From assembly GCA_036504815.1 (NCBI GenBank), contig DASXUN010000006.1:1-64000 (forward strand): a DNA stretch of 64,000 bases, written 5' to 3'. This document shows, piece after piece, positions 52,787 to 55,585 of the stretch. The notes under the pieces were generated by a model that ran no database searches, was not told the origin of the DNA, and saw only the letters and a program-made list of their open reading frames with translations. This DNA is from Gemmatimonadaceae bacterium. GTDB taxonomy: Bacteria > Gemmatimonadota > Gemmatimonadetes > Gemmatimonadales > Gemmatimonadaceae. Made by a program: the position numbers and the translations under genes. How positions within the stretch are numbered: the stretch's first letter is position 1; each line of letters starts with the position of its first letter.

Positions 52787-54667
52787 CTACTCGTCGCGCC
52801 TCACGAGCCGCCGCACCTCATCCTGGGCGGCAAGCAGGCGCTCGACTTCGGCCGAGACGTCCGCCGCGAGACCGATGTGCGTCGTCAGGCTCGCGACCGA
52901 CAGCGACCCGGCGTGCAGGCGCAGGAGGTTCAGGCGGATGGTCTCGAGCGCGGCGACGGTCTCCCCGAGCTTGGTCTTCAGGGCATCGCGGTCGCGGCGC
53001 ACCGGCTCATAGGCCGCGGCGCTGGCGTCCTCGCCCGCGTCGTTCAGGAGTTCCTGCAACTCGTCGAGCGGGCGGCGCAGCGCCTGGGCATCGTCCTGCA
53101 GGCGATGCAGCAGGGCGGGGAGGTCGCCGAGCTGCTCACGCGTGGACTTCGGGAGGCCCGCGAACAGGCTCTCGGCGGCCATGCCCAGCGAGAGCTCCGT
53201 GGCGCGATGCGTTACCGCCGATTCCGTGACCGGACCGCGAATGAGGCGGCGGCCGACGGCCCAGGCGGTGCGGCCGATGGGACCGTTCCAAATGCGCGCC
53301 CAGAATCCAGTGTCCACGTCGCGACGACGCTGGAGAAGGGCGAGATAGCCGAGGCCGCCGAGCACGAAGACCGACCATGAACCGGCGAGTACTTGCGCCA
53401 GCCATCTCCAATGACTGGACCAGGGCATGTTGAAGACCATGTACATCACGCCGGCGAACGACCCGACGGCGACGGTCCCGCTCACCTGTACAATCCGTTT
53501 CAACCATCGCTCGGCGCGCGTCGCCTCGCGCGCGTGCTCCACGGCCAGTTCCTCGCGCGTCGCGTCAGCTTCCGCCTGAAATGCGGGCGCAAGATCCATG
53601 TGCGCGAATCCCATGCGTGCCAGCCGCCGTGCCGACGCCGTAAGCGCCGCGAACGGTAGCATCGTCGAGCCGACAATCAGCGCGCCGAGTCCGGCCAACC
53701 CGCCGAAGAGCGCAGAGACGCTCGTTGACCCCAGCAACAATGCGCCCGCCACCAGCACCGTGCCGCCGCCATCGAGCCGCCCATTGCGCTTCACGAACGC
53801 GCGCAGCGCCACCGGAATCTCCCGACGCTGCTCGAGCGCAACGCCGAGTTGCTCGGCGAGGGTGGTCGCATTGGCCGGACGATGCGCCGGGTCCTTGGCG
53901 AGACAGCGATCCACGAGCGACGCCACCTTGCGCGGTACGGGCAGTCCCAGCGATGCGAGCGGGGGCGCGGGTTCGGTCACCTGCTTCGCGAGCACTTCGG
54001 TGGGCGTGGCGCCCTCGAACGGCAGGCGGCCGGAGAAGGCGAAGAAGGCGGTGGCGCCGAGCGAGTACAGGTCGCTGCGCGCGTCGAGTTCGTTGCCCAG
54101 CGCCTGTTCGGGGCTCATGAACTCGGGCGTGCCGCTGATCCCGTCGCCATCGTCGTCGCCCATCGCCGCCGCGATGCCGAAGTCGGCGACGAGCACGCGC
54201 TGCGTGGCCGATTCGATGAGGATGTTGTCGGGCTTCACGTCGCGGTGCACCACGCCCTGCGCGTGCGCGCTCGCGAGCGCCCACGCGGCCTCGCGCAGCA
54301 CCCGCGATCCCTCGGTGGCGGGGAGGGGACCGCGCGATCGCACGCGCTGCGCCAGCGATTCGCCATCCACGTAGGTCATCACGTAGTAGACGAAGTCGCC
54401 AACCTCGTCCACAGCGTGGATCGGAATGATGTTGGGGTGCGACAGCTTCGCGGCGAGCCGCGCCTCGCGCAGGAAACGACCGCGCAGCGTGGCGTCGAGG
54501 GCGCGCTCCGGTGGCAGCAGCTTGATGGCCACCGGGCGGTCCAGGTGCACCTCGCGCGCGAGATACACGATCCCCATCCCGCCGCGACCGATCTCGCGGT
54601 CAATCGAATACCGCCCAGCGAGCGCCGTCTGAAAGGCGACGAAGAGGTCGTCGACCGGGGGCGTCAT
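52787..54667 (-). CDS. Membrane-bound Hanks-type Ser/Thr protein kinase
   Basis: The 626-residue protein has a kinase domain at about residues 20-280: IGRGGMGIVYLA, VAIKLLPPE, VVHRDVKPDN, VADFGIA and EFMSPEQ. Two hydrophobic hairpins follow (TVLVAGALLLGSTSVSALFG with LAGLGALIVGSTMLPFAA, and VSGTVAVGSFAGVMYMVF with LAGSWSVFVLGGLGYLAL). The C-terminal 190 residues are helical and coiled-coil-like (LPALLHRLQDDAQALRRPLD). The catalytic residues are intact. It starts 22 bases after the response-regulator stop, so it belongs to the Hpt/receiver/kinase operon; its input may come from that phosphorelay. Confidence 0.92.
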   Translation of the reverse strand: MTPPVDDLFVAFQTALAGRYSIDREIGRGGMGIVYLAREVHLDRPVAIKLLPPERALDATLRGRFLREARLAAKLSHPNIIPIHAVDEVGDFVYYVMTYVDGESLAQRVRSRGPLPATEGSRVLREAAWALASAHAQGVVHRDVKPDNILIESATQRVLVADFGIAAAMGDDDGDGISGTPEFMSPEQALGNELDARSDLYSLGATAFFAFSGRLPFEGATPTEVLAKQVTEPAPPLASLGLPVPRKVASLVDRCLAKDPAHRPANATTLAEQLGVALEQRREIPVALRAFVKRNGRLDGGGTVLVAGALLLGSTSVSALFGGLAGLGALIVGSTMLPFAALTASARRLARMGFAHMDLAPAFQAEADATREELAVEHAREATRAERWLKRIVQVSGTVAVGSFAGVMYMVFNMPWSSHWRWLAQVLAGSWSVFVLGGLGYLALLQRRRDVDTGFWARIWNGPIGRTAWAVGRRLIRGPVTESAVTHRATELSLGMAAESLFAGLPKSTREQLGDLPALLHRLQDDAQALRRPLDELQELLNDAGEDASAAAYEPVRRDRDALKTKLGETVAALETIRLNLLRLHAGSLSVASLTTHIGLAADVSAEVERLLAAQDEVRRLVRRDE

Positions 54668-54689
54668 GGGGCGCGTACCCTTGCGGGTT

Positions 54690-55190
54690 CTACGGTGCGC
54701 CGGCGGGTGGCGATGCGGGCGGCGTCGAGCCACCAGATGCGGGTGGCGATACCGGCGGCGTCGAGCCACCGGGCGCGGGCGGCTCGCCGGACGGCGGACT
54801 GGCGTTCGCAGGCGTCTCGAGCCCGAGCGCGCGCCGCAGCGACGCATCCAGCTTGTCCACGTCCACCGGCTTCGTCAGGTAGTCGCACGCGCCGAGGGCC
54901 TTCACTTCCTCGATGATGCGCCGGTCGGAGTGTCCGCTCAGCACGATCACCGGAATCTTCCTGGTCTTCAACGATCCCTTGAGCCGCTCGAGGACGGCCT
55001 TGCCGGTGCCGCCGGGCATCTGGATGTCGAGGACCACGACATCCGGCGGCGCCCGCATCACGACCATCGAGGCATAGGTCGCGTCGTAGGCGGCCGCGAC
55101 CGCGTATCCGCGAGCGCGCAGCTGGTCCGTGAGCATCACGGTCTGGACCTTGTCGTCGTCGGCGAGCAGCACCGTGTACTTGCGCTTCAT
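54690..55190 (-). CDS. Single-receiver response regulator with Pro/Ser/Gly-rich tail
   Basis: The 166-residue protein has a complete receiver (residues about 5-122): LLADDDKVQ, VVVLDIQMPGGTGKA with the phospho-Asp, VIVLSGHSD and YLTKPVD. The last 40 residues are low-complexity, with GGSTPPVSPPASGGSTPPAS repeated as near-identical units, also visible as DNA repeats at 54694-54785. There is no output domain. It overlaps the Hpt gene by 4 bases and precedes a Ser/Thr kinase, so phosphotransfer from Hpt to this receiver is likely. Confidence 0.92.
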   Translation of the reverse strand: MKRKYTVLLADDDKVQTVMLTDQLRARGYAVAAAYDATYASMVVMRAPPDVVVLDIQMPGGTGKAVLERLKGSLKTRKIPVIVLSGHSDRRIIEEVKALGACDYLTKPVDVDKLDASLRRALGLETPANASPPSGEPPAPGGSTPPVSPPASGGSTPPASPPAGAP

Positions 55191-55585
55191 GCGGTCATCT
55201 CTCGCAGGACGGGAGTCAGGCGTTCCAGGGCGGTCTCGAGTGCGCGCAGCGCTTCGGGGGCCGAGTGCAGATCACCGGCGCGGCCGAGCTGCTCCAGGCG
55301 GAAGGCCGCCGCGAGCGACTCCTCGGCCACGAAGTTCCCGACCGAACCCTTGAGCAGGTGCGCGGCCTGCGTCAGCCCCTCGGCGTCACCGCTGGCCACG
55401 GCGCGCCGCACGCCGTCAAGCTGGCTTGGAAGTTCCTGCAGCATGACCGCCGCCATCGCCGCCGCCAGCGCGGTATCCCCGTGCAGGCGGTCCATGAATG
55501 CCGCAACGTCGATGGGATGGGCTGGCGCCAAGCGTGGATTTCCGGGTGAAGTCGAAGTTCCGAGTGAAACTAAGAATAGCGCCAT
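55187..55585 (-). CDS. Histidine phosphotransfer (Hpt) protein
   Basis: The 132-residue helical protein carries the Hpt signature LTQAAHLLKGSVGNFVAEES, with the phosphorylated His in AHLLKGS at about residue 75. It has no kinase domain and no transmembrane segment. The gene overlaps the receiver gene downstream by 4 bases (ATGA), giving a compact Hpt / receiver / Ser-Thr kinase operon. No hybrid histidine kinase lies next to it, so the phosphodonor must be encoded elsewhere. The start at 55585 is the best ATG, though a shorter protein is possible. Confidence 0.9.
   Translation of the reverse strand: MALFLVSLGTSTSPGNPRLAPAHPIDVAAFMDRLHGDTALAAAMAAVMLQELPSQLDGVRRAVASGDAEGLTQAAHLLKGSVGNFVAEESLAAAFRLEQLGRAGDLHSAPEALRALETALERLTPVLREMTA

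What the first reader, a model, noticed from the sequence alone, without database searches (positions are those of the whole stretch)
52787..55585. Hpt, receiver and membrane Ser/Thr kinase in one overlapping operon
A two-component phosphorelay output (Hpt to receiver with a low-complexity tail) is encoded together with a Hanks kinase carrying four membrane segments. This suggests direct crosstalk in which receiver phosphorylation gates the Ser/Thr kinase, with the donor histidine kinase elsewhere.
Basis: partly seen in the sequence, partly recalled or inferred. Interest (0 to 1): 0.6.

Follow-up and report, generated by a model that had tools for sequence, protein, structure and literature searches.

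The report
Phosphorelay pair beside a Ser/Thr kinase
Three neighbouring bacterial signalling genes are real and intact, but relatives repeatedly lose the kinase while keeping the other two, so the kinase looks like a lineage-specific neighbour of an ordinary phosphate-relay pair rather than its obligatory target.

Summary
In detail: an Hpt protein, a receiver protein and a Hanks kinase with four membrane helices lie head to tail on the minus strand of a Gemmatimonadota genome. Only Hpt and receiver overlap (ATGA); the kinase starts 22 nt after the receiver stop.

All three keep their catalytic residues and are under purifying selection. In the genus the trio sits at one conserved locus, but the linkage is loose. 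The kinase is a deletion-riddled pseudogene in one species and gone from another, in separate branches, while Hpt-receiver stays intact. A third species lost Hpt and kept receiver-kinase. In other genera of the family, the 20 loci checked for the same receiver subfamily carry no kinase; ten have an Hpt next door, in three fused to a hybrid histidine kinase (HK-REC-REC-Hpt) directly upstream. Full-length relatives of the kinase stand alone in unrelated contexts.

Best reading: a phosphorelay tail (Hpt to stand-alone receiver) fed by hybrid kinases elsewhere (four Hpt-less candidates found), with a genus-specific kinase gene joined behind it. Receiver gating of the kinase (a Ypd1-Ssk1-Ssk2-like circuit) is not excluded but no longer the default. 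Novelty and interest are modest.

The parts
55187..55585 (-). Stand-alone Hpt protein (132 aa; phospho-acceptor His76 in AAHLLKGSVGNF; the conserved part begins near residue 24, so the true start may lie inside the ORF)
   Evidence: Pfam PF01627 E 2.1e-11; His76 and Gly80 invariant in 11 homologues; median dN/dS 0.33 in the genus
54690..55190 (-). Single-domain receiver protein (166 aa) with a variable Pro/Ser/Thr-rich C-terminal tail; start overlaps the Hpt stop by 4 nt
   Evidence: Pfam PF00072 E 7.9e-23; D12, D13, D55 and K107 invariant and S85 nearly so in 14 homologues; median dN/dS 0.21
52787..54667 (-). Hanks-type Ser/Thr kinase (626 aa): kinase domain 20-269, four membrane helices about 301-445, C-terminal helical region 491-625
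   Evidence: Pfam PF00069 E 4.5e-45; catalytic residues invariant in 29 homologues; AlphaFold2 model, mean pLDDT 81; median dN/dS 0.18
55603..57276 (-). M20-family peptidase immediately upstream; constant left neighbour of the pair in the genus, not part of the signalling unit
   Evidence: Pfam PF01546 E 1.5e-19; synteny
51062..51571 (+). dUTPase-like gene on the other strand; constant right boundary of the locus in the genus
   Evidence: Pfam PF00692 E 2.5e-14; synteny

Best explanation
The locus is the tail end of a His-Asp phosphorelay, Hpt to single-domain receiver, with a membrane Ser/Thr kinase gene joined behind it in one genus. Shown: the three genes, their intact active sites, their tight spacing, the ancestral tie between this receiver subfamily and an Hpt, and the repeated loss of the kinase without loss of the pair. 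Inferred: one or more hybrid histidine kinases elsewhere that have receiver domains but no Hpt pass phosphate through this Hpt to Asp55 of the receiver. The receiver then acts by binding partner proteins or as a phosphate sink, because it has no output domain. The kinase is co-transcribed but mainly an independent membrane kinase, and its activity does not depend on the receiver in an obligatory way.
For: Same receiver subfamily in other genera of the family: 20 loci examined, no kinase beside any, an Hpt beside ten; in G014, G149 and G098 the Hpt is the C-terminal domain of a HisKA-HATPase-REC-REC-Hpt protein directly upstream (the full domain list was read for G014). Kinase pseudogene in G005 (residues 53-157, including the HRD loop, deleted, then further deletions and frameshifts) and no kinase in the 211 nt between receiver and dUTPase in G010, with Hpt-receiver intact in both. 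G005 is sister to kinase-bearing G008 (100/100) and G010 groups with G000, G004 and G001 (87/99), so there were two losses. Kinase homologues at 58-64% identity stand in unrelated contexts without receiver or Hpt. Own-genome hybrid kinases with receiver domains but no Hpt: four on contigs C4 and C23. Hpt-receiver ATGA overlap and intact active sites.
Against: The kinase follows the receiver by only about 8-37 nt in all seven genomes that keep a full-length kinase at the locus, so co-expression is very likely; G007 lost the Hpt yet kept receiver and kinase adjacent; the kinase in these genomes is under purifying selection. A coupling gained in the genus ancestor and lost later in two species would look the same.
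Confidence: 0.65

Rival explanations
1. Receiver-gated kinase: phospho-receiver (or the unphosphorylated form) binds the membrane kinase and switches it on or off, so that Hpt to receiver to Ser/Thr kinase is one linear pathway, like yeast Ypd1-Ssk1-Ssk2.
For: Constant order and tight receiver-kinase spacing in seven genomes; the receiver has no output domain of its own; G007 keeps receiver-kinase after losing Hpt; the logic has a precedent in yeast (PMC4377207).
Against: Kinase lost twice with the pair retained; pair and kinase occur separately outside the genus; the whole gene block is syntenic, so synteny is not specific.
Confidence: 0.2
2. Reverse crosstalk: the kinase phosphorylates the receiver (for instance its Ser/Thr-Pro tail) or the Hpt and tunes the phosphorelay.
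For: Ser/Thr phosphorylation of two-component proteins by bacterial kinases is documented (for example B. subtilis DegS, PMC3033389, and the review PMC4601284; listed); the tail holds Ser/Thr residues.
Against: The tail is not conserved and is missing in G007, where the kinase is kept; the pair survives without the kinase.
Confidence: 0.12
3. Pure neighbourhood, a stricter form of the best explanation: the kinase is merely co-located and co-transcribed, with no functional relation of any kind to the relay.
For: Random placement gives such an adjacency in about 13% of trials for a genome of this make-up; the kinase's relatives occupy unrelated loci.
Against: Short spacing preserved across seven genomes.
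Confidence: 0.35

Closest known systems
Hybrid histidine kinase (HisKA-HATPase-REC-REC-Hpt) plus stand-alone receiver in other genera of the same family (G014, G149, G098)
   Same: Same receiver subfamily (42% identity in G014) lying directly behind an Hpt
   Different: There the Hpt is fused to the kinase; here it is a separate protein, the sensor is elsewhere, and a Ser/Thr kinase follows
Single-domain receivers working as relay hubs or sinks (Caulobacter MrrA and LovR, PMC5964349)
   Same: A receiver without output domain placed in a multi-protein phosphorelay
   Different: No biochemistry for this one; membership in those families was not tested
Yeast Sln1-Ypd1-Ssk1-Ssk2/22 (HOG pathway, PMC4377207)
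   Different: The resemblance rests on gene order only; no evidence of receiver-kinase binding here
PknB-type bacterial Hanks kinases
   Same: The kinase domain matches PknB best among solved structures (E about 1e-78 for the family profile) and NCBIfam PknB_PASTA (272 bits, under its cut-off of 450)
   Different: No PASTA repeats; four membrane helices and a C-terminal helical region instead of one membrane helix and an external sensor
HstK-type Ser/Thr-His kinase fusions of cyanobacteria (cited in PMC2176072)
   Same: Ser/Thr kinase and two-component parts combined
   Different: There in one polypeptide with a histidine kinase; here separate genes with Hpt and receiver

Membership tests
Hpt phosphotransfer proteins (PF01627) | Hpt domain with conserved phospho-acceptor His | tested here: met
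   44.3 bits over a cut-off of 24.6; His76 invariant in 11 homologues
Single-domain response regulators (PF00072) | Receiver domain with acidic pocket, phospho-Asp, Thr/Ser and Lys, and no output domain | tested here: met
   81.2 bits, no other domain; D12/D13/D55/S85/K107
Hanks-type Ser/Thr kinases (PF00069) | VAIK Lys, alpha-C Glu, HRD and DFG motifs | tested here: met
   K49, E68, H141-R142-D143, N148 and D162 invariant in 29 homologues
PASTA-type PknB/Stk1 kinases | External PASTA repeats after one membrane helix | tested here: not met
   NF033483 272 bits against a cut-off of 450, match limited to residues 14-283; no PASTA domain in Pfam
Hpt-receiver-gated Ser/Thr kinase pathway (Ypd1-Ssk1-Ssk2 logic) | Kinase and receiver retained together across genomes | tested here: not met
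   Kinase lost in G005 and G010 with the pair intact; no kinase beside 20 receiver loci outside the genus
Hpt-receiver-gated Ser/Thr kinase pathway (Ypd1-Ssk1-Ssk2 logic) | Phosphorylation-dependent receiver-kinase binding | not testable with these tools
   Needs biochemistry
Phosphorelay tail of a hybrid histidine kinase | Cognate hybrid kinase whose receiver domain donates to this Hpt | tested here: inconclusive
   Four hybrid kinases with receiver domain(s) and no Hpt in the same genome; pairing cannot be read from sequence

The most novel reading that the evidence does not exclude
In this genus a stand-alone receiver, charged by a free Hpt, directly switches a membrane Hanks kinase: a bacterial counterpart of the yeast Ypd1-Ssk1-Ssk2 circuit, assembled in the genus ancestor and already lost again in some species.
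Probability: 0.2. Interest if true: 0.6.

Novelty: new member of a known kind. Interest (0 to 1): 0.25.

Why it matters
The Hpt-receiver pair is an ordinary relay tail. The locus is of some use as a natural experiment: several closely related genomes keep or lose the Hpt and the kinase independently, so a direct receiver-to-kinase switch, for which I found no bacterial precedent in the held papers, could be tested by comparing them. If the switch is real it would link two phosphorylation systems that are usually treated as separate.

Tried and rejected
Overlapping three-gene operon: rejected for the kinase, whose homologous start lies downstream of the receiver stop. Receiver tail as a conserved kinase substrate: rejected as a main argument, because it varies and is missing in G007. 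Synteny in the genus as proof of coupling: rejected, because the flanking metabolic genes are equally syntenic. Kinase family as generally linked to two-component genes: no Hpt and no adjacent receiver at the kinase loci scanned outside this locus; only a marginal receiver fragment in L028, a two-component cluster 1.8 kb or more from the G007 paralogue (L135) and stray histidine-kinase matches in L026, L125 and L137 turned up. Literature on Gemmatimonadota relays, or on operons of Hpt, receiver and Hanks kinase: nothing specific found in the held library.

Full report
WHAT IS THERE. Pfam names them Hpt, Response_reg and Pkinase, each well over its cut-off. The Hpt stop and the receiver start share ATGA. 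The kinase ORF appears to overlap the receiver only because its reading frame stays open upstream; the part that aligns with homologues starts at 54667, 22 nt after the receiver stop. In the other genomes with a full-length kinase at this locus the receiver-kinase gap is about 8 to 37 nt. The receiver ends in a Pro/Ser/Thr-rich tail. An AlphaFold2 model of the kinase shows the kinase domain, four long helices at 301-445 that match the hydrophobic stretches, and a C-terminal helical region. NCBIfam and PDB profiles place the kinase domain nearest to PknB, but there are no PASTA repeats.

IS IT INTACT. The Hpt His, the receiver acidic pocket, phospho-Asp and Lys, and all kinase motifs are conserved. 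Pairwise dN/dS in the genus has medians of 0.18 (kinase), 0.21 (receiver) and 0.33 (Hpt) (dS is near 1, so these are rough).

IS IT MORE THAN CHANCE. This genome holds 20 Hanks kinases and 49 receiver matches. With random placement, a kinase lands co-directional within 1 kb behind some receiver in 13% of trials. One such adjacency is therefore weak evidence, and its conservation inside the genus reflects one ancestral event.

WHERE ELSE. The genome is a Gemmatimonadota genome by its relatives; the closest named ones are groundwater MAGs labelled Gemmatimonadetes or Gemmatimonas. In the genus the order DUF192 - DUF5117-type protein - amidohydrolase - M20 peptidase - Hpt - receiver - kinase - dUTPase (opposite strand) - TPR kinase - TPR protein is kept as a block, with local variation (the names DUF192 and DUF5117 are my own labels from memory, not Pfam-tested). 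Of 11 genomes, ten have the receiver at this locus: Hpt-receiver-kinase intact in G000, G001, G003, G004, G008 and G009; receiver-kinase without Hpt in G007; Hpt-receiver with the kinase cut by the contig end in G006; Hpt-receiver with a ruined kinase in G005; Hpt-receiver with no kinase in G010. G009 also carries a second copy of the locus that is nearly the same as that of G003, probably a binning artefact. G002, 87% complete, has none. The G005 remnant joins residue 52 to about 157, losing the HRD loop, and then continues in other frames. A tree of six neighbouring genes puts G005 beside G008 (100/100) and G010 with G000, G004 and G001 (87/99), so the kinase was lost twice; deeper forks are unresolved.

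OUTSIDE THE GENUS. A profile search of 148 genomes of the family finds the same receiver subfamily (over about 118 bits) in some 21 genomes of other genera. The 20 of these loci that were fetched with up to 1.5 kb flanks show no kinase of this type. An Hpt is beside ten: C-terminal in an HK-REC-REC-Hpt protein immediately upstream in G014, G149 and G098, as an Hpt gene upstream in G020 and G167, and in a divergent Hpt-REC-REC cluster in five. The rest sit in unrelated surroundings, for example beside NAD biosynthesis genes in G022. Conversely, full-length homologues of the kinase in other genera and families have no receiver or Hpt next to them and lie among unrelated genes. In the kinase tree the copies at this locus are one clade, 100% SH-aLRT, among such solitary kinases.

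HOW IT MOST LIKELY WORKS. Shown: pair and kinase have separate histories and separate fates. Inferred from family knowledge: phosphate flows from the receiver domain of a hybrid kinase to His76 of the Hpt and on to Asp55 of the receiver, which has no output domain and must act by binding partners or as a sink. The genome has four hybrid kinases with one or two receiver domains and no Hpt and three free Hpt proteins: this one, one at C4:156884 and one at C12:264289. The kinase is probably co-expressed. Whether the receiver touches it is open; the retention of receiver-kinase in G007 after loss of Hpt is the best point in favour, and the two kinase losses are the best points against.

COMPARISON. 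The pair is an ordinary member of known families. The whole arrangement resembles yeast Ypd1-Ssk1-Ssk2, where the receiver gates a Ser/Thr kinase (PMC4377207), but the resemblance rests on gene order only. MrrA (PMC5964349) shows that stand-alone receivers can be relay hubs. I found no paper on this operon in the held library.

LIMITS. Most relatives are MAGs, so absences are less certain than presences, though both kinase losses lie inside contigs. The kinase search around receiver loci covered at most 1.5 kb on each side. dN/dS values are pairwise NG86 estimates. Confidences of the best explanation and of the pure-neighbourhood rival overlap, because the second is a stricter form of the first.

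Noticed in passing
window 48798-51032 (-): A second Hanks kinase with C-terminal TPR repeats lies about 1.8 kb beyond the first, in the same conserved gene block, so the locus holds two different Ser/Thr kinases in several species.
   Followed up: partly
window 51709-52755 (-): An ORF of about 314-348 aa between kinase and dUTPase has no Pfam match and no counterpart at this place in the other species; it may be a recent insertion or a fast-evolving outer membrane protein.
   Followed up: no
L279 (G000:C4:110000-124000): Two divergent hybrid histidine kinases without Hpt flank a TonB-dependent receptor; they are candidate donors for a free Hpt and look like a nutrient-sensing set.
   Followed up: partly
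L134 and L123: Genomes G009 and G003 (nzgw229, nzgw228) carry a nearly identical copy of this locus and G009 has a second, different one: probably cross-binning of MAGs.
   Followed up: no
L124 (G007), L123 (G003): About 4.5 kb is inserted between the kinase and the dUTPase gene in these genomes.
   Followed up: no
L030 (G053:C27): Several copies or fragments of the same four-helix kinase family in tandem, one of them broken by a stop codon, suggesting duplication and decay of these solitary kinases.
   Followed up: no
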